64,000 nucleotides of DNA, taken from contig JANQJM010000224.1 in the NCBI GenBank assembly GCA_028281635.1, forward strand, positions 62,001 to 126,000. The letters are read 5' to 3'. Below are positions 26,565-58,365 of the stretch, one piece after another. Position 1 is the first letter of the stretch, and each line of letters starts with the position of its first letter. The position numbers and the translations under genes are program-made. The stretch is from Pseudomonadales bacterium. Its GTDB lineage: Bacteria > Pseudomonadota > Gammaproteobacteria > Pseudomonadales > Pseudohongiellaceae. The notes under the pieces are model-generated. The model made no database searches. It was not told the origin of the DNA and saw only the letters and a program-made list of their open reading frames with translations.

Positions 26565-26580
26565 GCAATACTCGTACCAA
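26565..26580 (-). promoter_or_regulatory. Sigma-54 promoter of the ATPase 2-permease 3-permease 2-adaptor operon
   Basis: On the minus strand it reads TTGGTACGAGTATTGC: GG at 26578-26577, ten bases, GC at 26566-26565. Match to TTGGCAC-N5-TTGC is good apart from T for C within the -24 block. Predicted start is near 26553, leaving a leader of about 140 bases. Activator sites lie at 26638-26654 and 26661-26677. Confidence 0.65.
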
Positions 26581-26637
26581 CAAATTTCCGCCAGAGCCAA
26601 CGAGTTATCACGAGTCAAAACGAACTATTCTTTAAAC

Positions 26638-26677
26638 TGTTTCATTGTGAGCCAGATTCTTGTTTCGATTTGGAACA
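26638..26677. promoter_or_regulatory. Paired activator sites between the pump operon and the regulator gene
   Basis: The distal site 26661-26677 (TGTTTCGATTTGGAACA) is a near-perfect inverted repeat, extended by one T/A on each side. The proximal site 26638-26654 (TGTTTCATTGTGAGCCA) keeps one perfect half. Start-to-start spacing is 23 bp, and the gap to the -24 GG of the pump promoter is 59 bp. The same arrangement occurs at three other promoters in the window. Confidence 0.65.
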
Positions 26678-26789
26678 AAGACACAATGATTTCAAGTTGA
26701 GTACAGTTCTTGTCGTGTGAATTCAGGAAACGAGTTGCTGTTCTCAGTTCATTATATGCGCCTAATCGTTTCTTCTTTTTTTTAAGTGA

Positions 26790-26805
26790 TGGCTCTATTC
26801 TTGCT
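26790..26805 (+). promoter_or_regulatory. Sigma-54 promoter of the regulator-kinase operon
   Basis: The sequence TGGCTCTATTCTTGCT has GG at 26791-26792, ten bases, and GC at 26803-26804, a close match to TGGCAC-N5-TTGC. It lies about 113 bp downstream of the strong palindrome at 26661-26677. Its leader to the ATG at 27063 would be about 245 bases and includes a further perfect palindrome at 26967-26983. Autoregulation of the response regulator is therefore likely. Confidence 0.55.
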
Positions 26806-26964
26806 CTTGAAATTGAAACTGTGATTCAAATCCGATGAATTGCTCGAATAATGCTGGTTTATTGTTTAGACGTTAACGCGCCCGGCTGGTTACCAAAGAA
26901 TATTTCTTTAATTTTCAACATGTTACGCTGCTGCTGAAAATCCAACTGTGCCGAGAATTCCGAT

Positions 26965-26985
26965 ACTGTTTCAATATGGAACAGT
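26965..26985. promoter_or_regulatory. Activator-type palindrome in the regulator gene's leader
   Basis: The core TGTTTCAATATGGAACA (26967-26983) is extended by AC and GT into a 21-base inverted repeat. It is one of the best copies of the motif in the window. It lies downstream of the likely sigma-54 promoter and 80 bp before the regulator's ATG, where binding could repress or fine-tune expression. Confidence 0.55.
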
Positions 26986-27062: not shown

Positions 27063-28457
27063 ATGGGAATAGATTCAACAAAAAGCGACTTTTCACCCGC
27101 GACAATTCTGTTGGTTGATGATGACAGAGACGTGTTGCTCACTGCAGAACTGGTCTTGAAAGATGGTCAGAAAAGCATACACGCCTTGACAAATCCAAGC
27201 GATATGCCTGCTCTGCTGGAGCAGCATCACGTTAATGTGGTTTTACTTGATATGAACTTCACACGTGGCTTCACTGCCGGTGACGAAGGATTCTACTGGT
27301 TACATAAAATCAGAGAATTGTCGCCGCAAACACAGATCATCATGGCAACTGCTTATGGAGAGATTGATCTGGCAGTAGAAGCAATAAAGCAAGGCGCAGC
27401 GGATTTCCTGGTAAAGCCTTGGGACAACGAAAAGTTAGTCAGTACAGTTGATGCCTGTCTCAAACTGAGCCTGTCCGGGAGTCCGGATCGAAATTCAAAA
27501 CGTTCGCAGCAGGCAATTGATGAGAAACTTGAATCGCAGTTCAGTGAGATCATTGGCGAATCAGCCGTTATGCAACAGGTTTTTGACCTGGTGGATAAAG
27601 TTGCTGACACAGATGCCAGTATTCTCATTCGTGGTGAAAACGGCACCGGTAAAGACCTGATTGCTCGTGCTATCCACAACAAATCAAATCGACACCAATT
27701 CCCCCTCGTTAGTGTCGACCTCGGAGCCATCTCAGAAAGCCTGTTTGAGTCCGAGATGTTTGGCCACAAGAAAGGTGCCTTTACAGATGCACGTCAAGAC
27801 AGATCCGGTCGCATTGAGGCGGCAAACGGCGGCACACTGTTTCTTGATGAAATTGGAAACCTCTCTCTGACTTTACAAGCCAAATTGCTGGGAGCACTGG
27901 AAAGCCGAACGGTGACTCGAGTTGGATCTGATATCGCAGTACCCGTTGATATCCGGTTAATTTGTGCAACCAATATGGAGCCAGATAAGCTGCAGGATGA
28001 GTCGAAGTTTCGTCGCGACCTTCTGTATCGCATAAACACAGTGGAGATATTTTTGCCACCTTTACGGCAACGAGTAGAAGACATTCCGTTGCTGGCAAGT
28101 CACTACATAAAACTCTACGCCCGAAAATACAACAAACCCGAGATAAACCTAAGCAAAGCAGATATATCAAGGCTACAAGACTACAGCTGGCCGGGGAATG
28201 TTCGCGAGCTGCAGCATGCAATAGAGCGTGGTGTAATCATTGCAGAGAATGCGCAGATTGAGTTTCGGGACATTCTGGTAGGAAGACGTACGAGTACGGA
28301 CAATTCTCCAGAGTTAAACATCGCAAAGTTAGAACAACAAACGATTGAAAAAGCCATCGAACAATACTCCGGCAATCTTACCCAGGTTGCAAAAGCACTA
28401 GGCATGGGACGTACTACCCTCTATCGCAAAATGGAAAAGTATGGAATCTCTGACTAG
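27063..28457 (+). CDS. NtrC-family sigma-54 response regulator
   Basis: A 464-residue transcriptional activator. The receiver domain (about 13-130) has Asp20-Asp21, phospho-acceptor Asp63 in LLDMNF, Thr96 and Lys118. An extra loop after the phospho-site (TRGFTAGDEG) marks a subfamily I associate with FtsX-pump operons. The AAA+ domain (about 162-390) shows Walker A GENGTGKD (191-198), a sigma-54 contact loop GAFTDA (238-243, canonical GAFTGA), and Walker B GGTLFLDEI. A Fis-type helix-turn-helix ends the protein (LTQVAKALGMGRTTLYRKMEKYGI). It probably binds the TGTTTC-N5-GAAACA sites at several permease promoters in this window. It overlaps the kinase gene by 17 bp. Confidence 0.93.
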   Translation: MGIDSTKSDFSPATILLVDDDRDVLLTAELVLKDGQKSIHALTNPSDMPALLEQHHVNVVLLDMNFTRGFTAGDEGFYWLHKIRELSPQTQIIMATAYGEIDLAVEAIKQGAADFLVKPWDNEKLVSTVDACLKLSLSGSPDRNSKRSQQAIDEKLESQFSEIIGESAVMQQVFDLVDKVADTDASILIRGENGTGKDLIARAIHNKSNRHQFPLVSVDLGAISESLFESEMFGHKKGAFTDARQDRSGRIEAANGGTLFLDEIGNLSLTLQAKLLGALESRTVTRVGSDIAVPVDIRLICATNMEPDKLQDESKFRRDLLYRINTVEIFLPPLRQRVEDIPLLASHYIKLYARKYNKPEINLSKADISRLQDYSWPGNVRELQHAIERGVIIAENAQIEFRDILVGRRTSTDNSPELNIAKLEQQTIEKAIEQYSGNLTQVAKALGMGRTTLYRKMEKYGISD

Positions 28458-29808
28458 CCTTTTGAAAAGTCAGCATGGGCGGCTAATGTTCCATGTCGCG
28501 TTACTGATAGGGGCGATATTCGCGTTTTGCTACAGCCTGTTGGAGACTGATTGGATCGGGACTCCCATCATAAGTTTTTTCGTTATCGCAATAATTATCG
28601 CCAACATAGTTCGGCTGGTAGAAAAGAGCAATCGTGATTTTGCTCAGTTTCTAAACAACATTTCACACAATGACTTCGCCAGCTCCAGCGGCTCTTCAAA
28701 TCAGGGATTCAGCACTCGTGATTTTATAGATGCACAGAAGACTCTGCTGGGCAAATATCGCAAGCTCAAAGCGGATCGCAATATTCAAACTGAGTACTTG
28801 CAAATGGTTGTAGAGCACGTGGATGCTGCTCTGATTTGCTTCGATAGTGAAGGCAAGATTGAAATCATCAATAAGGCTGCCGAGCGGCTGCTGAACAAAA
28901 AGTACATTAGCAGTCTCAATATAGTCGCAAAAATAAACAAGGAGCTCGCCGATGCCTTCTGGTCTATACGGGCTGGCGAAACCCGAGTTCTCAAGTTAGT
29001 TATCAATAATGAGATGCACCAGCTCATCCTGACAGCAACGGAATTCATCTTACAGGAGCGAAAGTACAAACTGGTTTCACTGCAGAACATTAAGAGCGCT
29101 CTGGACGAAAGAGAAATCGAAAGCTGGCAGAAGCTAATTCGCGTGCTGACGCATGAAATAATGAACTCCATGACACCTATCGTATCGCTAAGCAGATACA
29201 TCGGTGGTGTAGTTGGAAGTAATGAACTGAGCCAGCGGCTGACAGATCGTAGTTCTGAGCAGTACAGAGACCTTCGTCAAAGCATAGAAGCTATCGCATC
29301 TCGAAGTCAGGGATTAATGGAATTCGTAGATTCTTACCGAAGTTTGAGTAACTTGCCTGAACCGGTATTCGATGAGATCAAGATAGTCACCCTCTTTGAA
29401 CGCATTGAACTGATGTTCAAAGAGCAGATGGAAACGCAGTCCATACACTTTGACTCTGAAGTTATTCCTGATACTGCGGTTCTAGTCGCCGATGTTAAAC
29501 TCTTAGAACAAATCCTGATTAACCTGATTAGCAATGCCATGGATGCAGTAGTCGAACGCACAGAGAAGAGAATACAGATGCGTTGTGAACAGAATATGTA
29601 TGGCAAGACGAAAATCAAGGTAAGTGACAACGGTCATGGAATTGGTAAAGACATAATCGACAACATCTTCACACCATTCTATACGACCAAAGAAAAAGGT
29701 AGCGGAATTGGGCTCAGCCTTTCCAGACAATTAGCCAGGCTTAACAAAGGTACACTTGCGGTGAGCAGCTCAGTGGGCGAAGGCACACAGTTCACCCTGT
29801 CATTCTAG
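28441..29808 (+). CDS. Sensor histidine kinase, intramembrane-sensing layout
   Basis: A 455-residue kinase, cognate to the overlapping response regulator. Two membrane helices at about 15-34 and 40-59 are joined by only a few residues, so there is essentially no periplasmic sensor. A linker, a PAS-like region (about 118-215), an H-box with His238 in LTHEIMNSMTPI, and a catalytic domain with N-box NLISNAMDAV, DNGHGIG and GSGIGLSLS follow. In Bce-type systems a similar lack of sensor means the kinase reads the state of an ABC permease; by analogy, an FtsX permease here could be the sensor. That is inference. Confidence 0.92.
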   Translation: MESLTSLLKSQHGRLMFHVALLIGAIFAFCYSLLETDWIGTPIISFFVIAIIIANIVRLVEKSNRDFAQFLNNISHNDFASSSGSSNQGFSTRDFIDAQKTLLGKYRKLKADRNIQTEYLQMVVEHVDAALICFDSEGKIEIINKAAERLLNKKYISSLNIVAKINKELADAFWSIRAGETRVLKLVINNEMHQLILTATEFILQERKYKLVSLQNIKSALDEREIESWQKLIRVLTHEIMNSMTPIVSLSRYIGGVVGSNELSQRLTDRSSEQYRDLRQSIEAIASRSQGLMEFVDSYRSLSNLPEPVFDEIKIVTLFERIELMFKEQMETQSIHFDSEVIPDTAVLVADVKLLEQILINLISNAMDAVVERTEKRIQMRCEQNMYGKTKIKVSDNGHGIGKDIIDNIFTPFYTTKEKGSGIGLSLSRQLARLNKGTLAVSSSVGEGTQFTLSF

Positions 29809-29854: not shown

Positions 29855-29893
29855 TGTTCAACATCGAAACACTCAGTGTTTCGATATGGAACA
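29855..29893. promoter_or_regulatory. Paired activator sites upstream of permease 4
   Basis: Two 17-bp sites, TGTTCAACATCGAAACA (29855-29871) and TGTTTCGATATGGAACA (29877-29893), start 22 bp apart. Both match TGTTYC-N5-GRAACA closely. The proximal site ends 61 bases before the -24 GG of the promoter at 29954. Confidence 0.7.
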
Positions 29894-29953: not shown

Positions 29954-29969
29954 AGGAACAAATCTTGCT
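29954..29969 (+). promoter_or_regulatory. Sigma-54 promoter of permease 4
   Basis: AGGAACAAATCTTGCT has GG at 29955-29956, ten bases, and GC at 29967-29968. The -12 TTGC is perfect and the -24 half is weaker (AGGAAC). Its position relative to the paired sites agrees with the other three promoters, which is the main reason to accept it. Predicted start is near 29980, about 29 bases before the ATG. Confidence 0.55.
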
Positions 29970-32447: not shown

Positions 32448-32448
32448 T

Positions 32449-33200: not shown

Positions 33201-35669
33201 CTATTCATAACGAAGAGCCTCAACCGGATTGGAACTCGATGTCGCATAGCATTGAATCGACACGGTAGCAAAAGCTAATGCAGCGACTCCTGAAGCAACC
33301 AATAGATACATACCAATTGGGAAGTTTGCCTGGGATGAAAAATCCGCGTAGAAATCACCTATGAAGTAATAGGCAATAGGCCATGAAACAACACAGGCAA
33401 CTAATACAGGCTTCAAGAAATCCCATGCCAGCAGACCAACAACAGAACTGGTACTTGCTCCTAGCACCTTTCGTACGCCAACCTCTTTTGTTCGCCGAAG
33501 ACTCGAATAGGACGCCAACGCGTACAGGCCACAAGCCGCTATAAAAATAGTGATAATGCTTGCGAATAGTGCAGCATTGCTAATGCCATTGGTCCTGGCT
33601 TCTATGAGGCCATCAAATTCCTGGCTTAAAAATACTCTATCTATCGGTGTGTCTGGACGATGCTGAGCCCAAACATTGTCGATGTGCTGCAAGGCTGCTT
33701 CCGTCTGACTAGGGTTCGTTCTTACCAGCACATACCTTTGCGGATTGGGTGATCCAAGCAGTGCACTGACCGATGTTTCATCAGTTTCTATACCGCCTCG
33801 AAGAAGGAACTGCCTTACTACTCCAATGACCTGCATCCTCAACGTTCCTAACAAAAGTATCTCTCCCACCGCGGCTTGCGGTGAATCAAAGCCGAACCGT
33901 CTTGCCATCAGGTCGGTAATAACCACGCCATAGTTATTTTCGAGATCAGGCGGCTCTCCACTGACTGGCAGAAAATCGGAGGGGAATGCATCGGAAAAGC
34001 CTCTTCCTGCAACAAGCTCTAAATCAAGTGCATCCATAAAATGAGAATCGACAAACGCGAAAGCGACTGCAAGGCGATCATTTTCTGCTCTTCCTTCGGT
34101 ACGCCACGATGTGACCCCCGGTTGGGCAGGAGGACTAAAACTGGACATCCCTACAGCTGCAATTGCCTGGTGACGCGCCAATTCATTTCTCAGTGCGGCA
34201 TAGTTAAATGCCTCAGGGTCGCTAGTGTTGTACCGGGAATCCACAACAATCAGATTATCTTTCTCGAAGGCGACATCCTGTGTTCGCATGTGATCAGTTT
34301 GCAGATAAACGGCTATCGCCAAAAGTATCAGCGTGGCAGAAACCACAAACTGAACGGACGTTATCACCGCCTTAATCAACTTTCCGGTCCGGCTCAAAGA
34401 GTAAGATCCACTGAATACCGATGCAGCTTGAAGTTTTGAAACCGACATTGCCGGAAGGATTCCTGCGGTTATGCCCGTTAATATGACTAAGGAAGCCAAT
34501 AATAAAATGATATTCACCTGGTAAATGTCATCATAGACAAAACCCGTAGCGGTCAGGCTAGTGTATGTTGGGATAGCTGCGGAGAGCAGAGGCAGCGCCA
34601 GCATAAATGCTAATGAGGTAAGTAGCAGTGACTCGATCAGAAACTGCCAAATAATATGGCCACGATTAGCCCCGAGCGCCTTTCTCACGCCAATCTCTTT
34701 GGTTCGTTGCGAAATCTGGGCAAGCGAGAGATTAATATAGTTGATGCATGAAGTAACCAGAATCAAGAAGGCAAAAGTAATCAGGCTGTACAAAACCGTC
34801 TTACTCGTTGAACTTTCCACCGAACCAAAGTTACTTAGAGGGTTAAGATAAATATCGTCGATTGATTGCAGCGATAGACCAAACCCCAGTCGTTCGGCAT
34901 CGGCGATATCTCCTCCTGACAAATTGCGCTCAATGAACCCTGGCAGTTCGGCGTTAATCTGGGCAGCAGATGTTTCGGGGCTCAATGTCAAAAAAGTACT
35001 TGAACCCTGAAAAGAAACCCATCCTCGATTGTTCATGAATTCGTCACCAAACATTTGTTGTCCGGTGGACTTCGAGACCAGTATTGAAAACGGATGGGTC
35101 GAGTTTTCAGGGATATCACGGAATACACCCGTAACCTGAATGTCGGCTTGGTTATCCAGAGTAAGAATTTGTCCGACCGGATCCTCTCTGGGAAAATATT
35201 TCTCTGCGGTTGTTTCATTGATGATCATGGAATTTGGGCGCGTCAGAGCATTTACCGCATCGCCATCTAGAAACTCCAGGTCAAATATTTGCACAGCATC
35301 TGGTTCTGCCCATGAAAAACTGTTTTCAGACGGTTCATTGTTACGACTGAAGATTCCGTTTGAAGGACGAATCTTCGCAACATGAATTATCCGTTCAGGG
35401 TAGTCTAGCCGCAGTTGGGCTGCATAAGGTTCTGCTGTATGGGCCGTGCGATAGGGTTCATTCGTACCTTGAACTACCTGGTGAGTGACCAATCTATAGG
35501 TGTTTTGCCAGTTGTCGATGTGTTTGTTCGAATTCTGCACGTAGTCTACATGCATTAAAACTAATGTAGCACCCGCAAGACCGACAGTAAGGCTCAGAAT
35601 CTTTATTAGAGAGAGGACTGGCTGTTTACGAAGACTTACCAATGCGATGAGTAAATAGTTCTTAATCAT
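33201..35669 (-). CDS. FtsX/MacB-like ABC permease 5
   Basis: A permease of about 822 residues, the last in the ten-gene array. Start chosen at ATG 35669 (MIKNYLLIALVSLRKQPVL), aligning with its paralogues; a TTG four codons earlier is possible. Motifs are KEIGVRKALGA in half 1 and KEVGVRKVLGA in half 2, then DFLKPVLVACVVSWPIAYY, so it belongs to the AWP-like subclass. C-terminus is NPVEALRYE. It begins 37 bp after the stop of permease 6. No terminator is obvious in the 120 bases after it. Confidence 0.87.
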   Translation of the reverse strand: MIKNYLLIALVSLRKQPVLSLIKILSLTVGLAGATLVLMHVDYVQNSNKHIDNWQNTYRLVTHQVVQGTNEPYRTAHTAEPYAAQLRLDYPERIIHVAKIRPSNGIFSRNNEPSENSFSWAEPDAVQIFDLEFLDGDAVNALTRPNSMIINETTAEKYFPREDPVGQILTLDNQADIQVTGVFRDIPENSTHPFSILVSKSTGQQMFGDEFMNNRGWVSFQGSSTFLTLSPETSAAQINAELPGFIERNLSGGDIADAERLGFGLSLQSIDDIYLNPLSNFGSVESSTSKTVLYSLITFAFLILVTSCINYINLSLAQISQRTKEIGVRKALGANRGHIIWQFLIESLLLTSLAFMLALPLLSAAIPTYTSLTATGFVYDDIYQVNIILLLASLVILTGITAGILPAMSVSKLQAASVFSGSYSLSRTGKLIKAVITSVQFVVSATLILLAIAVYLQTDHMRTQDVAFEKDNLIVVDSRYNTSDPEAFNYAALRNELARHQAIAAVGMSSFSPPAQPGVTSWRTEGRAENDRLAVAFAFVDSHFMDALDLELVAGRGFSDAFPSDFLPVSGEPPDLENNYGVVITDLMARRFGFDSPQAAVGEILLLGTLRMQVIGVVRQFLLRGGIETDETSVSALLGSPNPQRYVLVRTNPSQTEAALQHIDNVWAQHRPDTPIDRVFLSQEFDGLIEARTNGISNAALFASIITIFIAACGLYALASYSSLRRTKEVGVRKVLGASTSSVVGLLAWDFLKPVLVACVVSWPIAYYFIGDFYADFSSQANFPIGMYLLVASGVAALAFATVSIQCYATSSSNPVEALRYE

Positions 35670-35706
35670 AATTGTGCCCAAAAGACATTAGATTCATCAT
35701 ATGGAC

Positions 35707-38151: not shown

Positions 38152-38153
38152 GT

Positions 38154-45509: not shown

Positions 45510-45553
45510 TCAAAATTACCTTAGCTCTAAACTAGCTCTACTAGAGTCCAGAC

Positions 45554-48031: not shown

Positions 48032-50448
48032 TCGTAGCGCAATGCCTCCACTGGATTGGTTATTGCAGTTCTGTAGGCCTGGCTGCTCACCGTTACGAAC
48101 GCAATCAATGTGGTTATGCAAGTCGCCAATAAGAACACCGAAGGATCTATTTCGATTTGATAGTAGAAGCGCTGCAGCCATTGCGAGCTTGCCCAGAACG
48201 ATCCAATCGATGCCAGCAAGGCCGCACCGATCAGAAGGAATAACGTGGTTCTAAATAGCTGAAAGATTATGTTGAGGACAGAGGCACCCAGTACTTTTCG
48301 AATTCCTATTTCCTTGGTGCGTCGCTCAGTGCTGTAGGACGATAACCCTAGAAGCCCCAGGCAGGAGACGAAAATACAGATGGCTGAAAACGCGATGAAT
48401 AACTGCAATTGCTTTTGCTCTTCAGCGTACTGCCGATTAAGTTGATCTTCAAGAAACTGATAGTCCAACGGGTGAGCCGGATCAATGGACGGCCAGCTAT
48501 CACTCAGTATTGACAAGAATTCACTAACGGAGACACCTCCCACGTCAATAACCGCGGTGCGTGCCAGGGACTTTCGTTCTTCGTCAGATAACCCTCCGAA
48601 TTCCATATCCAGCAAGCTAACGACCGTTGGTCTTAAACTCTGGTGCAACGCGCGAACATGGAAGTCATCGATAACCCCAACGACAGTGGCTGGATTAAAC
48701 GCAATGCCAATGTTTTGTCCTAATGGTTCGTTCCATCCCATCTCACGCAAGGCCGTTTCATTGATGAGGGCTGCTTCCTCTCTGTCTGTACTAATAGCCG
48801 CATTAAAATTTCGCCCCCGGGTAACTTCGACCCCCATCAATTCGAAGAAGTTCTCGTCAACATATATGCGATTGAATTCCCTCCATTCATTAAACGGTGT
48901 GCCTGGAATGCCCACTGGCCACTCACCACCAGCAAAAATTCCTGACTGCCGACCTCTTGCGGTATAAGCGACCCCGGAGATAGCCCCTTGTGCCAAGAGT
49001 TCGTCAAAGAACAGTTCGCCATTTTCAATCGCGTCTGCTCCCCAGAGGCTGACCAGCACTTTGTCTTCTTTGTCAAAACCCAGCTCTCGATCCTGAATGA
49101 ATCGAATCTGCGAAAACATCAGCAGGGTCATCGCAATCACTGCAATTGAGATCGTGAACTGAAAACCTACAAGGGCATTCTGGGAGTAATTGCCTTTTTC
49201 TACGGATGTGTTTTTGTGTGCGTTCAATACTGTCAAATTGGTTGAGATGTAATAGGCAGGGTACAACCCGACTAGCACACCCAGAAAAGCGACAAGGGCT
49301 ACCGTCCCTAATACAAGCACTAATGGGCTCAGGGCTCTCAGAGATAAGTTTTGTCCTATGGCATTACTTACAAATTCAATGGCCAGAACAAACTCAACCA
49401 CACCCAGAGACAACAATACGGATAGTAAAGAGAGAAACGCTGATTCTCCCAGGAGCTGAATGATCAATTGCCTTTTCTCAGCGCCTAACAACTTTCTAAC
49501 TGCGATTTCCTTAACGCGTTTTATAGATCTGGCTGTAGCCAGATTCATGTAATTTACTGAGGCAACTAACAGTATGAGAATGCCGATTGCCGCAAACGCA
49601 TAAAGCGAAAAGACATTGGCTGTGTTTGTAGACGCTGACACTACGCCAGATTGCAAGTAAATGTCCGACAAGGGCTCAAGAAATAGTTGATCCCCCGTAT
49701 ACCCTCTTCCGCGCAATCCTTCCATGTGGCGCTGTTCAAACTCTGCCCAGATAGCTTGGAAAGATTCAGCCTCGTATCCCTCTACCATCTTCAGATAGGT
49801 GTTAGTCACATTCGCTGTTAGATTCGGCTCGAATTGTTGGAATAGTGATTCGATCGATATCAGTGCGTCATAGCGATAGTGGCTGGTCTGCGGAATATCC
49901 TGGAAAACCAGGGTTACCAGAAAATCGTCTGCTTCGGTGCTGAGTACCTTTCCCAGGGGGTCCTCATCCCCAAAGTAACGGTCGGCAAACGACTGACTGA
50001 TTGCGATGGAAGCAGGATTTAGTAAAGCCGATTCCGGATCACCGCTAATGATGTTGTGGGTAAATACATCGAAGACACTATTATCTGCATAGTGCACATT
50101 GTCCTCGTAAGTGATCTGATCTTCATAACGGAAGAACTCGGTTAAAGATCCGGAAAAGCGGACATATTCCAGTACTTCGGGATAGTCCTGTTTGAGATAA
50201 GGCCCTACGAGGCCACCAACGTTAGCACTGAATTCGAAAAATTCACCGTTGCGATATTGTTCTTCAGCAATTCGAAATATCTGGTCGCGGGATTCGTGGT
50301 GCTTGTCATAACTGAATTCATTATTCAGGTAGAGTGCAATGATGAGGCTACATGAGACACCAAGGGACAGGCCGATAATGTTTATTAGCCCGTAGACTTT
50401 CTCTCGCCAGAGTATTCTTAGTGTGGTTGTTATGTAGTTTTTAAACAT
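48028..50448 (-). CDS. FtsX/MacB-like ABC permease 11
   Basis: 806 residues from ATG 50448 (MFKNYITTTLRILWREKVYGLINIIGL). The stop overlaps the start of permease 10 by four bases. Motifs are KEIAVRKLLGA and KEIGIRKVLGA, then LNIIFQLFRTTLFLLIGAA (non-AWP subclass). C-terminus is NPVEALRYE. The 74 bp separating it from permease 12 contain no sigma-54 element or terminator that I can see, so both are probably on one transcript. Confidence 0.87.
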   Translation of the reverse strand: MFKNYITTTLRILWREKVYGLINIIGLSLGVSCSLIIALYLNNEFSYDKHHESRDQIFRIAEEQYRNGEFFEFSANVGGLVGPYLKQDYPEVLEYVRFSGSLTEFFRYEDQITYEDNVHYADNSVFDVFTHNIISGDPESALLNPASIAISQSFADRYFGDEDPLGKVLSTEADDFLVTLVFQDIPQTSHYRYDALISIESLFQQFEPNLTANVTNTYLKMVEGYEAESFQAIWAEFEQRHMEGLRGRGYTGDQLFLEPLSDIYLQSGVVSASTNTANVFSLYAFAAIGILILLVASVNYMNLATARSIKRVKEIAVRKLLGAEKRQLIIQLLGESAFLSLLSVLLSLGVVEFVLAIEFVSNAIGQNLSLRALSPLVLVLGTVALVAFLGVLVGLYPAYYISTNLTVLNAHKNTSVEKGNYSQNALVGFQFTISIAVIAMTLLMFSQIRFIQDRELGFDKEDKVLVSLWGADAIENGELFFDELLAQGAISGVAYTARGRQSGIFAGGEWPVGIPGTPFNEWREFNRIYVDENFFELMGVEVTRGRNFNAAISTDREEAALINETALREMGWNEPLGQNIGIAFNPATVVGVIDDFHVRALHQSLRPTVVSLLDMEFGGLSDEERKSLARTAVIDVGGVSVSEFLSILSDSWPSIDPAHPLDYQFLEDQLNRQYAEEQKQLQLFIAFSAICIFVSCLGLLGLSSYSTERRTKEIGIRKVLGASVLNIIFQLFRTTLFLLIGAALLASIGSFWASSQWLQRFYYQIEIDPSVFLLATCITTLIAFVTVSSQAYRTAITNPVEALRYE

Positions 50449-50522
50449 ATTGCGCCTTGTGCAGCAATTCCCCTTTCATCAGTTTGCACCAACGGTAGAC
50501 AGAGTATCCGCGGTTAACTTTT

Positions 50523-52928
50523 TTACTCGTAACCAATGCTCTCTACTGGATTAAGCAATGCTGCTTTCATTGACTGAACACTGACCGTCGCCATAGAGAC
50601 AACTACCGCCAATACTGCGGAAAGAAGAAACACGCCAAACCCGACTTGCTGATAGTAGGCGAATGTCTGCAGCCATTGCTGCATCAAATAAAATCCCAGC
50701 GGCAATCCAACAGCGACGGCTATGGCTACAGGTTTCATAAAATCTGCGGACAGTAGTCGCACAATACCGGTAATTGAGGCACCGAGTACTTTGCGAATTC
50801 CCACTTCTTTGGTTCGTTGCTGGATGGCGAATGATGCCAGGCCAAACAATCCCATACAGGCGATGAATATCGCCATGCCGGATGAAACGGTAAACAACAT
50901 CGCTGTTATCCGATCGCTGTTATAGAAAGTGTCGATCCGGGCATCGAGGAAGTTATACTCAAAGGGTGTTTCCGGGTCGTGGCGCTCCACCACAGCTTTC
51001 AGGTAGGCAAGTGTTTCCTCGGTATCATTGCTATTCACCTTGACGCTAAAGTAGTCAAACGGCTGAAATTCAGTATTGCTGCCCAATACCAAGGGCTGGA
51101 TAGTCTGGTGCAGAGATTGAAAGTGGAAGTCCTCAACCACTCCCACGACCGTGGCTTCCATTAGAACTTCCGACGCTCTCTGGACGCCGGCAATCGTAAG
51201 TCGCTGACCAAGTGGAAACTCCCAATTCATCCGGTCAACCAGAGTCTGGTTTACGACGACATTCTCCGCCGGTTCCACAGCCGTCAGATTTCGCCCCTCG
51301 ATTAAGTTAATGGCAAAAGTATCAGCAAAGTTTTCATCAATATTGATGGCGTAGATTTCTTGAGCAAATTCGGCGTCTCGCCCAGGAATGTTGGCGCTGA
51401 AGTTTTGATGCGGCTTCCAGTCACCTGGCAAGCGCGAGCTATTGCTTACCTCAATCACATTAGGATTATTCAGCAGCTCATTACGAATCACTGTCACATT
51501 ATCTCGCACCGGACCGCTGTTAATGTCGATGGCGATAATATCAGTCTGGTCGAATCCCAAAGGTTTGTTTTGCACAAAAGACATCTGCTGTGCGACAACC
51601 AAAGTACAAAACACCAGCACAACGGATTGTGAGAATTGAACGACAACCAGAAACTTTCTTAACAAGCCAGATGACCGCACTGAGGCCTGCCTATTTGACA
51701 ACCCCTTTGCGATCGTTTGTCTGGAAAGGACAAACGCGGGATAAGCGCCTGAGATAACCCCTAGAGCAAGTACCATAAAAACTATCAGAGACAGCAGCAC
51801 TGGTTCTGTAATGGTGCTCAATGTGAGCATCTTGCCAGTGGTGCCATTGATAACAGGCAGCAGCATCTGCACTATTGAGAGAGCCAGAATAAAAGCCAGA
51901 AAACTCAATACGACCGCTTCCACCAGAAACTGAGTGATCAACTGTGGCGTCTTGGCTCCCATCATCTTCCGCAAGCTGATTTCGTTGGCACGGCTGGTTG
52001 ACCGTGCTGTCGCAAGATTGGTGTAGTTAATCGCTGCGATGAGAACCAGGAATAGCGCGATGGTCTCCAAAGTATATATAACGGAAACATTTCCCGGATT
52101 GAAGTTCACTTGCCCGCTGACAATATCATTCGATTGGAAATGAATGTCCGGCAAACCCAACAACGAGAAACTGTACGACTCGGCATCTGGCAGAGGAGAT
52201 TGGTTTCTAATATACGCGCTGATTGCTTCTTCTAACTGCTGGACTTCAACTCCTTCACTAAGGCGCAAATAGGTAGCAAATGCGTTGTTTCCCCAATTAC
52301 TTTGCCAATCAGGTATGAAGCTGTCCAAATAGCTGGGGAATGGGAATATGGCATCCAGTTGTAAGTGAGAATTTGGAGGAGCTTCTTCGATGACTGCAGT
52401 CACCACGGTTTGCCCTCTGCTGCCAGTAAGTACTTTGCCGATAGGGTCTTCATCACCAAAATACTTCGTGGCAGTACTTTGTGTAATGACTATACCATCG
52501 GGATTAGTGAGTGCAGTAGCAGCATCCCCCTGAATAAAATCGTAGTCGAGCATCTGGAAAAATTCTGGGTCAACAGAAACTACAAATTCATAGTAACCAT
52601 TGTTTTCATAAGCCAGATTAGCTCGACCCAGCATTATCATCCGAAAGGATTCTTCGATTTCTGAAAAACCTGCTTCGAGTTCTGCTGCCAATGGCCCCGG
52701 CAAATTCACGAACTTAGTCAACCCTTGGCCTGGAACCTGCCTCTCGGCAACGATTTGGAATATTTGTTCAGCATCTTCATGATGCCGGTCATAACGCAAT
52801 TCATCGACTACATAGAGAAAGATTATCAGAGTAGATGCAATCCCCAGTGTCAGGCCAAGCAGATTGACTAAAGTATTTAACTTGTATTTCTGGAGGCCGC
52901 GAATCGCAAATTTCAGGCTGGTTGGCAT
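50523..52928 (-). CDS. FtsX/MacB-like ABC permease 12, first gene of an eight-permease transcript
   Basis: 801 residues from ATG 52928. It follows the best sigma-54 promoter of the window (53003-53018) and its paired activator sites, and probably opens a transcript running to permease 5 (about 20 kb, eight genes). Coupling motifs are NEISLRKMMGA and KEVGIRKVLGA, then DFMKPVAIAVAVGLPLGFY. The C-terminus is NPVESIGYE, slightly off the common ending. Confidence 0.88.
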   Translation of the reverse strand: MPTSLKFAIRGLQKYKLNTLVNLLGLTLGIASTLIIFLYVVDELRYDRHHEDAEQIFQIVAERQVPGQGLTKFVNLPGPLAAELEAGFSEIEESFRMIMLGRANLAYENNGYYEFVVSVDPEFFQMLDYDFIQGDAATALTNPDGIVITQSTATKYFGDEDPIGKVLTGSRGQTVVTAVIEEAPPNSHLQLDAIFPFPSYLDSFIPDWQSNWGNNAFATYLRLSEGVEVQQLEEAISAYIRNQSPLPDAESYSFSLLGLPDIHFQSNDIVSGQVNFNPGNVSVIYTLETIALFLVLIAAINYTNLATARSTSRANEISLRKMMGAKTPQLITQFLVEAVVLSFLAFILALSIVQMLLPVINGTTGKMLTLSTITEPVLLSLIVFMVLALGVISGAYPAFVLSRQTIAKGLSNRQASVRSSGLLRKFLVVVQFSQSVVLVFCTLVVAQQMSFVQNKPLGFDQTDIIAIDINSGPVRDNVTVIRNELLNNPNVIEVSNSSRLPGDWKPHQNFSANIPGRDAEFAQEIYAINIDENFADTFAINLIEGRNLTAVEPAENVVVNQTLVDRMNWEFPLGQRLTIAGVQRASEVLMEATVVGVVEDFHFQSLHQTIQPLVLGSNTEFQPFDYFSVKVNSNDTEETLAYLKAVVERHDPETPFEYNFLDARIDTFYNSDRITAMLFTVSSGMAIFIACMGLFGLASFAIQQRTKEVGIRKVLGASITGIVRLLSADFMKPVAIAVAVGLPLGFYLMQQWLQTFAYYQQVGFGVFLLSAVLAVVVSMATVSVQSMKAALLNPVESIGYE

Positions 52929-53001: not shown

Positions 53002-53018
53002 TGCAACTGACGTGCCAA
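53002..53018 (-). promoter_or_regulatory. Sigma-54 promoter of the permease 12-5 transcript
   Basis: On the minus strand it reads TTGGCACGTCAGTTGCA, a perfect match to TTGGCAC-N5-TTGCA. GG lies at 53016-53015 and GC at 53004-53003. Predicted start is near 52991, about 63 bases before the permease 12 ATG. Confidence 0.8.
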
Positions 53019-53078
53019 TCGGAATGGTTAAGCTTTTCAGCCAGTTATAGTTGCAGACAGTGAAAATCTGTATCCGCT

Positions 53079-53118
53079 CGTATCAAAATGAAACAAGTCT
53101 TTGTTCCATTTCGTTACT
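53079..53118. promoter_or_regulatory. Paired activator sites upstream of permease 12
   Basis: The proximal site CGTATCAAAATGAAACA (53079-53095) keeps one perfect GAAACA half. The distal site TGTTCCATTTCGTTACT (53102-53118) keeps one TGTTCC half. Their starts are 23 bp apart, and the proximal site is 62 bases from the -24 GG. Each is weaker than the copies at 26661, 26967, 29877 or 58349, but the geometry is the same. Confidence 0.55.
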
Positions 53119-53223: not shown

Positions 53224-55656
53224 TCAGGACACACGCAGGCCAGATGTTGGATTGACTATAGCGGCTCGTATCGCCTGCCAGCTCATAGTAAGTAAAGCGA
53301 TAGTTAGTGCCACGATTCCCCCATAGAAGAACACGACCCATTCGATATCAATACGATAATAGAAGCCGTTGAGCCAGTAGTTCATTCCATACCAGGCAGC
53401 GGGCGTTGCAATCAGGAATGCCAGCAATATCAAATTTAAAAAGTCGCGACATAGAACCGCTACGATGCTCACTATAGAGGCACCTAAGGTTTTTCTTACC
53501 GCGATTTCTTTGCTGCGCCGCTCGGCAGCGAATGCAGTTAGCCCAAGTAGTCCGAAACAAGAAATCAGAATCGCTGTCACTGCCGCTGAATAAATCAGAC
53601 TGCCTAATCGTCGCTCTGGCAAATAGTCGTCTTGAATTACGTCATCCAGGAAATAATATTCAAGTGGCGCGCCTGGATTTATTGCTTGCCAGGTGTTCTC
53701 TATAAAAGAAATCAGTGCCGACATATCTTCAGTTGCAAAATCCACAATGAGATAACTACTTGAGATTCCAATGCCGTTGTCCCAAAAGAATGCCTGGCCG
53801 TCTATTTCGTTATGCAAAGAGAACGAGTGAAAATCACTTACAACACCTATTATTTCAAACTCAGTGCGTCCAGAAGGTATGCTGTAGAGTATGCTATTGC
53901 CGACTGCATTGAGAGGATCGTAGCCTATGCCTCGCGCCAGAGTCTCATTGATAACTGTTTTGCCATCTGCATCGCCAGGTCTGTCCAGATCAAAGTTCCT
54001 GCCTGCAATAAAGTTGAAACCCATTACATCCATATAGTCCGTATCAACATATGAGATGTATCCAACTTTAGCTTCTTCTTGAATCCGGCCCGGGGCGTTG
54101 ATCAGACCATTCTCCAGATTTACGGAACTGGGGTATGTTGATGCGCCCCCAACATTGATAACCGCACTGCTTTGCAATAATGCATTTTTAAGTTCATCGA
54201 AATTTTTCTGCGAATCCCGACTGTTGTTAGGGATTACCAGCTTGTTGTTTTTGTCGAAACCCAAGTTCTGATTTTCGATAAACTCCATCTGCTCTGTGAT
54301 AATCAAAATTCCTTGGATCAATGAAATCGAAACAATAAATTGCAATACTACCAATCCTTTGCGTAGAGCTTGGCTGGATGATCTCCTACTAAGGTATCCT
54401 CGCAAAATTTCAACTGGCTTAAAGCTGGCAAGATAGAGCGCTGGATAGGCTCCCACCATAAGAGTAGTAATGACGATGAATGCAGCAAGAAAACCAGAGT
54501 CGGCACCAGAATCAAGTATGTTTGTGGAAAGCGATAGCCCGACTAATCCTGACAAGTATGGCATGGCAGAATCGGCTAATATGTAAGCCATAGTGACGGC
54601 AACTACAGTGTAGACAAAGGCTTCCAGCATAAACTGTCGCACCAGTACAGAACTAGAAGCACCGACAACCTTTCTGACCCCTACTTCACGCGCTCTGAGT
54701 AAAGCCTTTGCCGTAGCCAGATTGGTAAAATTTACACAGGCGATAATCAGTATGAATATGGCGATTATGCTCAGCGTGTAAAAGTAAAAGGAGCTGCCAG
54801 TAGGTCCTATCGTGGTCGAAAGTCCTGAATACAGATATACATCTTCAATAGCCTCAAAATACAGTCGTTTCGAAAACCCCAATTGAGCTAGTCTTTCCGT
54901 GGCAAAAGGTTCGAGCCAACCTGGCAATTGAGATTCAATCTGGTTCTGGTCGATACCATCTTGAAGTCTTACGTATGTATAGAAGATGTTGTTACCGCCC
55001 CATTCCTGCAGCTCATAGAAGCGATCACCCAATGCGCCGCTCATTGCGGAAATGTAATAGTCACCCTCTATATGAGATTTGTAGGTATCTTTGTTGAAGA
55101 CACCAGAGATCGTGTAAAGGTCTGTACCCCAGATAGTACTTTCAATCTCCAGAAGTTTTCCTAATGGATCTTCATCGGGGAAGAGCTTCGTCGCCACATC
55201 CGCCGAAACAACGACAGAAAAAGGCTCATCCAGAGCCGTAACCGGATCTCCAGCGAAAAAGTCATAAGTAAACAAGTTGAAGAAAGTCGGATCAGCAAAC
55301 AGTACTTCTTGTTCCAGATAAGACTCGTCGCCGACTGAGACGAGGAATTTTTCTACAGCTGGCGCCTTGAATACTCGTGTGCTCTCTGTGATCTCTAAAA
55401 AATCGCGCTTCAGCGCCGCGGCTATTGCCGGAGAAGCAGCTGCCGTTCGTTCATCACCGTCGCTGAAGGAGTACTCAGTGGCTACTCGAAAGATACTGCC
55501 TGAGTGATGGCGGTCGTAACCGAATTCTGCACGCAAATATTGCAATATAAGAATGCAGCAAGCTAGTCCGATTGCCAGCCCAATGATGTTTACCAGTGTA
55601 TAGCTGCGCAGCTGGCACAAATTCCTGATGGTCAATTTGAGATAGTGGAAAAGCAT
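53224..55656 (-). CDS. FtsX/MacB-like ABC permease 13
   Basis: 810 residues from ATG 55656, 14 bp after permease 14, so the pair forms a two-gene unit. Coupling motifs are REVGVRKVVGA and KEIAVRKTLGA, then DFLNLILLAFLIATPAAWY (AWP-like). The C-terminus NPTSGLRVS departs from the ALRYE ending. The second periplasmic domain carries an NNSRDSQKNFDELKNALLQ stretch. Confidence 0.87.
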   Translation of the reverse strand: MLFHYLKLTIRNLCQLRSYTLVNIIGLAIGLACCILILQYLRAEFGYDRHHSGSIFRVATEYSFSDGDERTAAASPAIAAALKRDFLEITESTRVFKAPAVEKFLVSVGDESYLEQEVLFADPTFFNLFTYDFFAGDPVTALDEPFSVVVSADVATKLFPDEDPLGKLLEIESTIWGTDLYTISGVFNKDTYKSHIEGDYYISAMSGALGDRFYELQEWGGNNIFYTYVRLQDGIDQNQIESQLPGWLEPFATERLAQLGFSKRLYFEAIEDVYLYSGLSTTIGPTGSSFYFYTLSIIAIFILIIACVNFTNLATAKALLRAREVGVRKVVGASSSVLVRQFMLEAFVYTVVAVTMAYILADSAMPYLSGLVGLSLSTNILDSGADSGFLAAFIVITTLMVGAYPALYLASFKPVEILRGYLSRRSSSQALRKGLVVLQFIVSISLIQGILIITEQMEFIENQNLGFDKNNKLVIPNNSRDSQKNFDELKNALLQSSAVINVGGASTYPSSVNLENGLINAPGRIQEEAKVGYISYVDTDYMDVMGFNFIAGRNFDLDRPGDADGKTVINETLARGIGYDPLNAVGNSILYSIPSGRTEFEIIGVVSDFHSFSLHNEIDGQAFFWDNGIGISSSYLIVDFATEDMSALISFIENTWQAINPGAPLEYYFLDDVIQDDYLPERRLGSLIYSAAVTAILISCFGLLGLTAFAAERRSKEIAVRKTLGASIVSIVAVLCRDFLNLILLAFLIATPAAWYGMNYWLNGFYYRIDIEWVVFFYGGIVALTIALLTMSWQAIRAAIVNPTSGLRVS

Positions 55657-55670
55657 TTTTACCTCTTCAA

Positions 55671-58127
55671 TTACTCGTACTTTAATCTTTTAGCAGGATT
55701 GGCTTGCGCTGTGCGATACGTTTGGGCAATTGACACAGAAATACTGAATACGCCTACTACAAGAACAGCGAAAAGATATGGCACTACGCTGAATTCGACA
55801 CGATAGGCAAATCGCTCTAGCCAAAGAGTGGAAATATAGTATGCCCCTAATATGCCAGGCAGGATCGATATAACCAGTAATTTGCCTACATCTCGCGTAA
55901 GTAGTGCTAAAAGATTTTTAAGGGAAGCTCCAAGTACCTTGCGAATGGCAATTTCTTTCCGACGCTGTTCGGCCCCATAGGCCGCGAGGCCTGTCAAGCC
56001 GAGAAGAGAAATAGCAATGCTTAAGATACTGAAAAACCCAACCAGTTGTATTGCTCGCGTATCGCGCGCGTAAAGCCTCTCCCAAAGGCTTTCAAGAGAT
56101 TCAGCCTCAACCACAAACTGATTTGTAAACTGGCGAACTGTTTCCTCTATATAGGAACGAGTTTCTGCTGAGTTGTTACCGGTAACGCTAATGACGAGAT
56201 CGACCCGTTGTCTAGCTCTGCCTCTGGGTGACATACCGCTGAATCGTTCATCGTTATAAGGTGCAAGATAGGTGGGTTCAATCGATTCGTGCAGCGGCAT
56301 GAAATGAAAGTCCTTGATGACTCCAATGACCTGAGCTCTGCCAATCAATTTTCCGAGGGGCTGATCCCACTCCATCGCATCAACAAAGGTTTCATTAACC
56401 ACAACAGGGTTTTCGCCATCGAGTAGTTGTTCCTGACGAAACATGATGCCATCGACAAGTTCGATCTCCATTACATCCAGAAATTCGTCTCCAACATTGA
56501 AACCGTACATTCTTTGATTGCGCCGTCCACCTTCGTTAGTGTCCACAGGAAAAACGGCCAGATTACTGATGCCCCGACCAAATACACTGCTCATTTCGGT
56601 AGCTCCCAGAATGTCGGGATGCTGAAGGAGTTCATTGGTTAGTGCTTCGCGTGCCGTTATTGCATCGGCACCAACAAGCTGCACAACCAGCTGATTGGAT
56701 TTTTTGAATCCCATTGAGGAAGACTGCAAAAAATCTGACTGTCTCAGCATTGAGAGCACACACGCAACGATAATCAACGAGACAGTAATCTGTGTTAATA
56801 CCAGAAACTGCCTGATTGGCAGACCTTTTCGCTGTGGCTGTGGTTCTGATCTTAGATTGGACAGGGCAGATTGTCTGGTTAAATAGAAGGCTGGATAGAG
56901 CCCAGCTGTTGTTGCCAGTGCGACCATTGATAGCAGGAAAATGGCAATGCCCCAGAAAGAGGTCAATGGAGTAATTAAAGCAGTATTGCCAACGAATGAC
57001 TCTATATAAGCCAACTCCAGCGCTAGTGAGCCCAGGAACAGGCCGAGTCCGACAGCGATTGCGACGAACACAAACGATTCCAAGAGAAATTGTCTTACCA
57101 GTGTTTCCTTTTGTGCGCCCAGCACCTTTCTCATAGCAACCTCTTTGGCTCTGACCGAAGCTCGTGCTGTTGCCAGATTGATATAGTTAATAGTGCCAAT
57201 AATCAGAAGTGTGATAGCAACTGCTGCAAACAGATAGACATTGACAATGTTGCCCCCCGATTCACCAAACCCTCCGGTTCCACCAATATTAAACTTTGGC
57301 CCAAAATGAATGTCGGTCAGATTCTGCAAGGCGAGTCGGTACAAACCAACATCAGCCCCCCCTGTCGCTCTGGCAAATCCTTCTGCGAGATAACTATCGA
57401 ACGTATCCTGAGAAATAGCATCCATGGTTGCTGGATCAAAGTCGTTGGCCACGATGAGATAAGATGCGCCACTCATCGCCATAAAGTTCACAGCAAAGTC
57501 ATTGGCAAAGTTTGTGCGATACACAGGGAGCATCGCCATGGGTATTAGTGCATCGTACTTGAATGACGTGTTACTCGGCAGGTCTTCAAAGACCAGGGTC
57601 ACACGAAACTCAAATTGTTCTGTGCTGACCACTTCCCCAATAGGGTCGCGATCACCGAAATAGTACTGGGCGAAGCTGTCGCTAACCGCTATGGAGTATG
57701 GGTCATTAAATACGCTATCGATGTCTCCGTATTTCACATCGAACGTGAAGTGTTCGAAGGCTGATACATCAGCCAGATAAGTCTCATCCCAGATTTGTTC
57801 GTTGTCGCCGTAGCTAAACTGTCTCTCGTCAGCTTCCATAAAACGAACATGGTCTAAAAACTGAGGATAGTCCCTGACAAGTAGCTCGGTAATTTGATAC
57901 CCGGTAAGAGGAGCAGAGATAAAGGTGCCAAAATAGGTCTCTACCCGATAAATTCGCTCGTGGTTTTCGTGATATCGATCGTAAGTAAGCTCATGATGCA
58001 GATAGAGTCCGATTATCATGGAACCTGCTATCCCCAAAGCAAGGCTCAGAACACAAATAAGAGCATAGAACTTCTCTCGTGTCAGTCGACGCAATGTGAT
58101 GACGAATAGGCCGGACAAGTAATTCAT
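55671..58127 (-). CDS. FtsX/MacB-like ABC permease 14
   Basis: 818 residues from ATG 58127, first of a two-permease unit under a sigma-54 promoter. Coupling motifs are KEVAMRKVLGA and KEIAIRKVLGA, followed by DVGKLLVISILPGILGAYY, which fits neither main subclass exactly. The C-terminus is NPAKRLKYE. A glycine-rich stretch (GGTGGFGESGGN, about residue 280) precedes the second membrane helix. Confidence 0.87.
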   Translation of the reverse strand: MNYLSGLFVITLRRLTREKFYALICVLSLALGIAGSMIIGLYLHHELTYDRYHENHERIYRVETYFGTFISAPLTGYQITELLVRDYPQFLDHVRFMEADERQFSYGDNEQIWDETYLADVSAFEHFTFDVKYGDIDSVFNDPYSIAVSDSFAQYYFGDRDPIGEVVSTEQFEFRVTLVFEDLPSNTSFKYDALIPMAMLPVYRTNFANDFAVNFMAMSGASYLIVANDFDPATMDAISQDTFDSYLAEGFARATGGADVGLYRLALQNLTDIHFGPKFNIGGTGGFGESGGNIVNVYLFAAVAITLLIIGTINYINLATARASVRAKEVAMRKVLGAQKETLVRQFLLESFVFVAIAVGLGLFLGSLALELAYIESFVGNTALITPLTSFWGIAIFLLSMVALATTAGLYPAFYLTRQSALSNLRSEPQPQRKGLPIRQFLVLTQITVSLIIVACVLSMLRQSDFLQSSSMGFKKSNQLVVQLVGADAITAREALTNELLQHPDILGATEMSSVFGRGISNLAVFPVDTNEGGRRNQRMYGFNVGDEFLDVMEIELVDGIMFRQEQLLDGENPVVVNETFVDAMEWDQPLGKLIGRAQVIGVIKDFHFMPLHESIEPTYLAPYNDERFSGMSPRGRARQRVDLVISVTGNNSAETRSYIEETVRQFTNQFVVEAESLESLWERLYARDTRAIQLVGFFSILSIAISLLGLTGLAAYGAEQRRKEIAIRKVLGASLKNLLALLTRDVGKLLVISILPGILGAYYISTLWLERFAYRVEFSVVPYLFAVLVVGVFSISVSIAQTYRTAQANPAKRLKYE

Positions 58128-58249
58128 GATAAGTATCTAGGATTGCGGACTTTTCAGCCCAGCAGCAGGAATTGGGACTTTTTTTAATTGACAGCTATGA
58201 GACTAGACTCAGGGAAAATGATCAATTTGGTCTGTTCCCAGGTTTATTC

Positions 58250-58265
58250 CGCAAAGAACATACCA
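58250..58265 (-). promoter_or_regulatory. Sigma-54 promoter of permeases 14-13
   Basis: On the minus strand it reads TGGTATGTTCTTTGCG: GG at 58264-58263, ten bases, GC at 58252-58251. The -12 half is perfect, and the -24 half is TGGTAT. Predicted start is near 58239, giving a leader of about 112 bases. Confidence 0.65.
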
Positions 58266-58325
58266 ACTTAACATCTCTACCGATGAAGGATTGATCAAGA
58301 CTGCAGGACTTAAACTCTATATTGC

Positions 58326-58365
58326 CGTTCCATCCCGATACAGACTACTGTTTCAAGATGAAACA
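58326..58365. promoter_or_regulatory. Paired activator sites upstream of permease 14
   Basis: The distal site TGTTTCAAGATGAAACA (58349-58365) has perfect inverted arms TGTTTC/GAAACA. The proximal site CGTTCCATCCCGATACA (58326-58342) is a degenerate copy. Starts are 23 bp apart, and the proximal site is 61 bases from the -24 GG. The GDPD gene ends at 58399 just beyond. Confidence 0.7.

What the first reader, a model, noticed from the sequence alone, without database searches (positions are those of the whole stretch)
26565..58365. A sigma-54 regulon of ABC permeases with conserved promoter geometry
Four separate transcription units (pump operon at 26410, permease 4, permease 12, permease 14) each have a GG-N10-GC promoter. 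Each is preceded by two TGTTTC-N5-GAAACA-like sites 22-23 bp apart, with the near one 59-62 bp from the -24 element. Three of the four lie on the minus strand and one on the plus strand, so this is not a copied stretch. Individual sites vary, but the spacing does not. The NtrC-type regulator at 27063 sits in the middle, with perfect palindromes beside its own gene, so it is the natural binder.
Basis: partly seen in the sequence, partly recalled or inferred. Interest (0 to 1): 0.85.

Follow-up and report, generated by a model that had tools for sequence, protein, structure and literature searches.

The report
Sigma-54 regulon of ABC permease genes
A marine bacterium appears to switch on a pump and a large family of related membrane transporter genes together, through one two-component regulator that reads the same multi-part DNA control element in front of each gene group, and the same element recurs beside related regulators in a second bacterial phylum.

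Summary
Four composite promoters (two TGTTTC-N5-GAAACA-like sites, 22-23 bp start to start, plus a -24/-12) lie before the pump operon and three permease units: scores 29-30, next best in the window 22, best of 60 shuffles 26. A sequence-only model from 15 relatives' promoters, without own-genome sequence, has as its six best near-full-length hits in the own genome these four plus two unlinked permease promoters. In 84 same-genus genomes all 23 hits at E<=1e-5 precede a pump or permease gene of this clade; they lie in 8 genomes, 7 carrying the regulator. Among 80 related regulators the site pair goes with recognition helix GR[ST]T[LM]YRK (22 of 24 against 2 of 56), in Gammaproteobacteria and Bacteroidota, though mostly as one clade. 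New here: an IHF-like element between enhancer and promoter (clear in 2 of the window's 4), a conserved sigma-54 promoter and site at the regulator's own gene, and a kinase with almost no periplasmic loop. A 2025 paper reports sigma-54 promoters at such permeases; in the passages seen no regulator or enhancer is named. Binding and transcription are untested.

The parts
26564..26579 (-). -24/-12 promoter of the pump operon, TGGTACGAGTATTGCG
   Evidence: core letters conserved in 8 of 8 aligned regulator-pump intergenic regions from 7 genomes
26638..26654 (.). near enhancer site of the pump operon
26661..26677 (.). far enhancer site of the pump operon (23 bp from the near one)
26595..26607 (-). 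IHF-like element between enhancer and promoter, 7 of 9 consensus positions
26790..26805 (+). second -24/-12 promoter, TGGCTCTATTCTTGCT, reading toward the regulator gene
   Evidence: TGG and TTGC columns invariant in 8 of 8 regions
26967..26983 (.). single enhancer site upstream of the regulator gene
   Evidence: a like site in 8 of 8 regions
27063..28457 (+). NtrC-type response regulator (receiver, sigma-54 AAA+ domain with GAFTDA, Fis-type HTH with helix GRTTLYRKM)
28441..29808 (+). histidine kinase with two N-terminal hydrophobic helices separated by about 11 residues
   Evidence: hydropathy only
25712..26410 (-). ABC ATPase (MacB/LolD/DarD-like), first gene of the pump operon
23184..25667 (-). 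duplicated MacB/FtsX permease of the pump operon
20698..23151 (-). second duplicated permease of the pump operon
19402..20661 (-). periplasmic adaptor (HlyD/DarC-like)
29855..29871 (.). far enhancer site of the permease at 30009
29877..29893 (.). near enhancer site of the permease at 30009
29954..29969 (+). -24/-12 promoter AGGAACAAATCTTGCT
   Evidence: weakest of the four in the relatives' model, E 0.005
53079..53095 (.). near enhancer site of the eight-permease unit
53102..53118 (.). far enhancer site of the eight-permease unit (8 of 12 positions, the weakest site)
53035..53047 (-). IHF-like element, 8 of 9 consensus positions
53002..53017 (-). -24/-12 promoter TGGCACGTCAGTTGCA, matching all 11 specified consensus positions
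33201..52928 (-). eight orphan permeases in a row (52928 down to 33201), read as one long unit
   Evidence: unit inferred from overlaps or gaps of at most about 75 bp
58326..58342 (.). near enhancer site of the permease at 58127
58349..58365 (.). far enhancer site, the only perfect TGTTTC-N5-GAAACA in the window
58250..58265 (-). -24/-12 promoter TGGTATGTTCTTTGCG
53224..58127 (-). two orphan permeases (55671-58127 and 53224-55656), read as one unit

Best explanation
This is a dedicated sigma-54 regulon of an NtrC-type two-component system. The kinase (28441) phosphorylates the regulator (27063). Two regulator dimers bind the paired sites about two helical turns apart; an IHF-like protein bends the roughly 60 bp to the -24/-12 element where such a site is present; the regulator's AAA+ ring then opens sigma-54 polymerase. 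One signal so induces the tripartite pump (ATPase, two permeases, adaptor), eleven orphan permeases in three units in the window, at least two unlinked permeases on other contigs, and probably the regulator itself. The orphan permeases have no ATPase beside them and probably share the pump's ATPase, forming MacB-like complexes with different periplasmic domains for different envelope-active compounds. Shown here: the sites, their geometry, their genome-wide specificity, and their co-occurrence with the regulator and its recognition helix. Inferred: binding, sigma-54 dependence, ATPase sharing, substrates and signal.
For: Composite scores far above shuffles. Model R1, built without own-genome sequence, gives as the six best near-full-length hits of the own genome (model position 6 or earlier to 116; E 1e-10 to 0.005) the pump, C116 permease, 53017, C30 permease, 58265 and 29954 promoters (genes). 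In 84 same-genus genomes there are 23 hits at E<=1e-5, all full-length; 12 were in the model, and the 11 others all precede a pump ATPase (2) or permease (9) of the clade; the 12 model ones do too. Seven of the 8 genomes with such hits carry the regulator at >=63% identity. Spacing peak at 23 bp in the 74 more distant loci, 11 pairs against at most 4 at any other spacing; four distinct permuted palindromes as controls, at most 3. Helix GR[ST]T[LM]YRK against paired sites: 22 of 24 versus 2 of 56. In 18 of these distant loci a relaxed -24/-12 match lies downstream on the permease side, mean 8.06 of 9 against 5.90 +/- 0.18 in shuffles; the other side is at chance, 5.56. IHF-like score in 9 promoters not seen when the position was chosen: mean 7.0 of 9 against 4.99 +/- 0.33, 0 of 2000 shuffles. 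rpoN is present.
Against: No binding or expression data. The helix/site association rests largely on one clade: only 1 independent pair on well-supported branches. Two same-clade permeases in the own genome (C136, C119) and the second C116 permease have no such promoter, so not every permease is in the regulon. The permease 4 promoter is weak in the relatives' model (E 0.005, after four partial hits). The strict GG-N10-GC form was met in only 4 of 17 distant loci on the permease side; most have TTG without the C. The IHF-like element is at its usual place in only 2 of the window's 4 promoters. One of three composite hits in Exilibacterium (L038 2367-, sharing its far site with the 2532+ promoter) has no permease or pump gene downstream. 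The simple score gives hits of 25-26 at unrelated places (for example L068, L073), which is its noise level. The regulator's sigma-54 contact loop reads GAFTDA, not GAFTGA.
Confidence: 0.85

Rival explanations
1. The promoters are real sigma-54 promoters but another of the genome's NtrC-type activators binds the paired sites, or several do.
For: The genome has ten further matches that cover the sigma-54 activator region of the regulator, and Fis-type recognition helices are short.
Against: The next closest regulators in the genome are 42% and 39% identical with different helices (SKSAFYRK, SRSALYRR); the composite hits at E<=1e-5 are absent from 76 same-genus genomes without this regulator, and the two of these that were checked (G007, G101) do carry other activators.
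Confidence: 0.08
2. The shared promoter geometry is a by-product of gene duplication: permeases were copied with their upstream regions, so it says little about current regulation.
For: The permeases are paralogues in tandem and the pump promoters of relatives align over the conserved blocks.
Against: The permeases are only 23-43% identical and the spacers of the window's four promoters show no evident likeness outside the elements (by eye), while sites, spacing and -24/-12 persist; the same module recurs in Bacteroidota and at unlinked permeases.
Confidence: 0.04
3. The paired sites are operators of a repressor or silencer, not an enhancer.
For: A single site also sits just upstream of the regulator gene (26967), where repression would be plausible.
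Against: A -24/-12-like element at a set distance follows the pairs on the permease side only, and the linked DNA-binding protein has a sigma-54 activator domain.
Confidence: 0.03

Closest known systems
NtrC-type two-component sigma-54 regulons (NtrBC, ZraSR, AtoSC)
   Same: Receiver, AAA+ sigma-54 domain and Fis-type HTH; paired upstream sites; IHF-like site; -24/-12 promoter (the general NtrC/IHF layout is recalled)
   Different: The targets found are one paralogous family of ABC permeases and their pump; of the 25 NCBIfam matches shown for the regulator (of 86) none reaches its cut-off; GAFTDA loop
Sigma-54 promoters at COG0577/FtsX-like permeases reported in PMC12316311 (passages seen)
   Same: Reports enrichment of sigma-54 promoters at this permease class in Gammaproteobacteria, Opitutia and Bacteroidia
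   Different: In the passages I saw no activator, enhancer site or regulon architecture is given for it, and its activator catalogue kept only proteins with GAFTGA, which would drop this GAFTDA regulator (inference)
Darobactin exporter DarBCD (NCBIfam NF038007, NF038008, NF038010)
   Same: Best-scoring NCBIfam match for ATPase (271 bits) and adaptor (189 bits); the four permeases tested also match DarB
   Different: All below the curated cut-offs (375, 450, 700 bits); many permeases. The adaptor does pass the broad RND_mfp model (TIGR01730, 133 bits, cut-off 94.9)
Bce-type peptide-resistance module (PMC10314905, passages seen)
   Same: ABC permeases of the FtsX class linked to a kinase without a sensing domain
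   Different: NtrC-type sigma-54 regulator, many duplicated permeases, an adaptor protein, Gram-negative hosts; flux sensing not shown

Membership tests
Sigma-54 enhancer-binding protein regulon | Regulator with sigma-54 activator AAA+ domain, receiver and HTH | tested here: met
   PF00158 E 1.8e-64, PF00072 E 3.7e-20, PF02954 E 2.3e-13
Sigma-54 enhancer-binding protein regulon | GAFTGA loop motif | tested here: not met
   GAFTDA here, and in 26 of 28 distinct regulators with the same helix; GAFTDA is also the commonest form in the other relatives, 60 of 83. A one-residue variant in the whole group, so it lowers this feature only
Sigma-54 enhancer-binding protein regulon | -24/-12 promoters with upstream activator sites at set distance | tested here: met
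Sigma-54 enhancer-binding protein regulon | rpoN in the genome | tested here: met
   PF04552, G000 C166, E 8e-72
Sigma-54 enhancer-binding protein regulon | Transcription lost in rpoN or regulator mutants | not testable with these tools
   no expression data
ADOP family (TIGR03434) | Score at or above the curated cut-off of 622.3 bits | tested here: not met
   257 to 298 bits for the 4 of 13 permeases tested
ADOP family (TIGR03434) | About 800 aa with duplicated MacB_PCD/FtsX units | tested here: met
   of 3 permeases scanned with Pfam, 3 have two FtsX stretches and 2 have two MacB_PCD stretches
Darobactin exporter | Components above NCBIfam cut-offs | tested here: not met
Bce-type module | Kinase with two membrane helices and a very short extracytoplasmic loop | tested here: met
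   hydropathy only: gap of 11 residues here; 4-15 residues in 20 of 22 related kinases listed, one helix found in the other 2
Bce-type module | Transporter needed for kinase signalling (flux sensing) | not testable with these tools
   needs mutants
Bce-type module | OmpR-type response regulator (recalled) | tested here: not met
   NtrC-type regulator

The most novel reading that the evidence does not exclude
A Gram-negative, sigma-54-driven counterpart of the Bce module: the kinase has no sensing domain of its own and reads the working state of the permease/ATPase complexes in the membrane, so that use of any of a dozen shared-ATPase permeases turns up the whole array. The regulator, its enhancer pair and the promoter have moved or persisted as one package between Gammaproteobacteria and Bacteroidota.
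Probability: 0.25. Interest if true: 0.75.

Novelty: new member of a known kind. Interest (0 to 1): 0.52.

Why it matters
It assigns a likely activator and an exact DNA address to a large class of orphan ABC permeases whose role is unknown, and shows which unlinked permeases belong together. That makes two open questions testable: what induces these permease arrays, and whether many permeases share one ATPase. The promoter model can be used to find further regulon members in other genomes.

Tried and rejected
Chance: rejected by shuffles of the window and by same-genus genomes without the regulator as a natural control. Limits of these searches: in the own genome 150 of 448 first-look candidates were scored; in the genus search at most 43 per genome, with stricter filters; in the regulator search at most 19 per genome.

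My first scan for -24/-12 sites returned nothing because of an index error; corrected. By eye the permease 4 promoter seemed to have an N11 spacer (TTGGCAGGTGAGTGTGC); the scan showed a proper N10 site at 29954.

The C194 array of the same genome was examined as a possible further part of the regulon; its promoter scores E 0.136 and its regulator has a different helix, so I left it out. Permeases on C136 and C119 and the second one on C116 were tested and lack the element.

Helical phasing of the enhancer-promoter distance (67-71 versus 79-84, one at 90, in the distant set; 67 versus 75-80 in Gammaproteobacteria) fits one turn of DNA.

The pair threshold (summed score 18) was chosen; L033, whose reading frame is cut before the helix, was counted among 'other' and has the pair; it was dropped. 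For one search the 18 loci were those plus L027; L037 (helix present, pair score 17) was left out. The IHF position range was chosen, which held 5 of the 14 'held-out' promoters; the 9 unseen ones were tested alone. The two promoters with the 67 bp distance (C30 and G053 C214) were left out.

Literature: 8 searches, of which I saw the listings. Papers opened, passages only: PMC12316311, PMC3162934 (none of the terms found), PMC10314905. No structure prediction was run.

Full report
WHAT WAS CLAIMED AND WHETHER IT IS THERE. All four are present. A composite score (12 + 12 letters for the sites, 11 for the -24/-12) gives 30, 30, 30 and 29 for the four, 22 for the next best place in 64 kb, and at most 26 in 60 dinucleotide shuffles. 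The pairs are 22-23 bp apart and the near site starts 75-78 bp before the -24 hexamer. The palindromes beside the regulator are not perfect (one or two mismatches).

THE GENES. Two sit in the pump operon with an ATPase and an adaptor; one is on the plus strand at 30009; eight run from 52928 to 33201; two from 58127 to 53224. Of the 18 window proteins scanned with Pfam only the one at 25712 is an ABC ATPase. The regulator at 27063 has a receiver, a sigma-54 AAA+ domain and a Fis-type HTH. The genome has one rpoN match.

GENOME-WIDE TEST. I aligned 15 promoters from relatives and built a sequence-only model with no own-genome letters. In the own genome the hits that run from model position 6 or earlier to 116 are, in order, the pump promoter (E 1.0e-10), a promoter on contig C116 (4.7e-8), 53017 (3.8e-5), a promoter on C30 (6.3e-5), 58265 (1.1e-4) and, after four partial hits, 29954 (0.0049); the next such hit (from position 7) is on C194 at E 0.136 (150 of 448 first-look candidates scored). 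The C116 and C30 promoters stand directly before same-clade orphan permeases. In C30 the enhancer is about 10 bp, one helical turn, closer; a like promoter in relative G053 (C214) has the same distance. Not every permease is included: C136, C119 and the second permease of C116 have no such element.

RELATIVES. In 84 genomes of the genus the model gives 23 hits at E<=1e-5, all full-length, in 8 genomes (at most 43 candidates per genome scored). Twelve were in the model. The 11 others all precede the pump ATPase (2: G032, own) or a permease of the clade (9). The 12 in the model do so too; for G042 the contig ends inside the ATPase gene, whose start lies 221 bp after the promoter, and for one G025 promoter the permease begins about 350 bp on, in the next stretch fetched. 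Seven of the eight genomes encode the regulator at 63% identity or more. The eighth (G032, 73% complete) has no match at that level, but its pump contig ends about 500 bp beyond the promoter, where the regulator would begin. The other 76 genomes have neither at these thresholds; one of them (G101) carries a 49% relative of the regulator.

A SECOND PHYLUM. In 74 of them (L027-L101 without L038) pairs of sites peak at 23 bp (11 pairs; at most 4 at any other spacing; four distinct permuted palindromes give at most 3), mostly just upstream of a permease gene that diverges from the regulator gene. The pair goes with the recognition helix GR[ST]T[LM]YRK: 22 of 24 regulators with it, 2 of 56 without (the threshold was set). 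On a tree built without the HTH this is mainly one clade (4 label changes, 1 independent pair on well-supported branches), so the association is not many independent events; what it shows is that helix and site have been kept together over great divergence and two phyla. In 18 of these loci a relaxed -24/-12 match (TGGYAY-N5-TTG) on the permease side averages 8.06 of 9 (shuffles 5.90 +/- 0.18, largest 6.56), on the other side 5.56. The strict GG-N10-GC form was found in only 4 of 17 on that side.

First, between enhancer and promoter there is an element matching the IHF consensus (recalled: WATCARNNNNTTR) in one orientation, starting 28-32 bp before the -24: 13 of 15 promoters of the model reach 7 of 9 and 10 of 14 others. 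For the 9 promoters not seen when that position was chosen, 8 reach 7 of 9, mean 7.0 against 4.99 +/- 0.33 in shuffles, 0 of 2000. In the window it is clear at 26579 and 53017, displaced at 29954 (29907-29919), and absent there at 58265 (a 7 of 9 match in the other orientation). Second, the regulator has its own -24/-12 (26790) and a single site (26967), both with counterparts in 8 of 8 intergenic regions from 7 genomes, which suggests autoregulation. Third, the kinase has two hydrophobic helices with about 11 residues between them, so almost no periplasmic part; 20 of 22 related kinases listed show gaps of 4-15 residues (hydropathy only).

HOW IT PROBABLY WORKS. Phosphorylated regulator dimers occupy both sites, DNA bending brings them to sigma-54 polymerase at -24/-12, and pump and permeases are induced together. 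That the orphan permeases borrow the pump's ATPase is inferred from the lack of ATPase genes beside them. The likely role is export of, or protection from, envelope-active compounds, as for MacB and Bce relatives; the five solved-structure matches of one permease (53224) are MacB and other ABC permeases. The kinase without a sensing domain makes a Bce-like reading possible, in which the transporters themselves are the sensor (for the Bce module); this is untested.

WHAT IS KNOWN. PMC12316311 (passages) reports sigma-54 promoter enrichment at COG0577 permeases in Gammaproteobacteria, Opitutia and Bacteroidia and calls its result the first evidence for this link. I found no activator or enhancer for it in those passages, nor in the listings of eight searches of an open-licence library. 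The paper's activator list required GAFTGA; this regulator group mostly has GAFTDA. The mechanism is thus of a known kind; the regulon, its activator and its address appear new within what I searched.

Noticed in passing
G000 contig C194, loci L102-L104: A second array of 18 tandem duplicated permeases with its own regulator, kinase, adaptor and two ATPases; its regulator has a different recognition helix and its promoter only a weak match (E 0.136), so it is probably a parallel regulon with its own enhancer.
   Followed up: partly
26448-26469 (-): A GC-rich hairpin in the leader of the pump operon between promoter and ATPase start, with counterparts in most of the 8 aligned regions by eye; in two relatives (G108, G040) a U-run follows, like an intrinsic terminator or attenuator; z-scores -2.2 to -3.4 in the three folded.
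   Followed up: partly
L119, L124, L129, L185-L186 (G025, G053, G040, G108): A sister regulator (47-50% identical, helix TRAALYRR in the three read) with its own ATPase and permeases occurs in these relatives, in G108 about 24 kb from the first system.
   Followed up: no
26891-26987 (-): The region around the single site at 26967 matches model positions 21-106 (E 0.0035) on the minus strand although my scan lists no -24/-12 there, and like partial matches recur in G053 (two) and G108.
   Followed up: no
17681-18283 (-): A YdeI/OmdA-like protein (Pfam: bacteriocin protection) lies on the same strand downstream of the pump operon.
   Followed up: no
32449-33078 (-): A LuxR-type HTH followed by a glyoxalase-like domain in one protein sits between permease units.
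   Followed up: no
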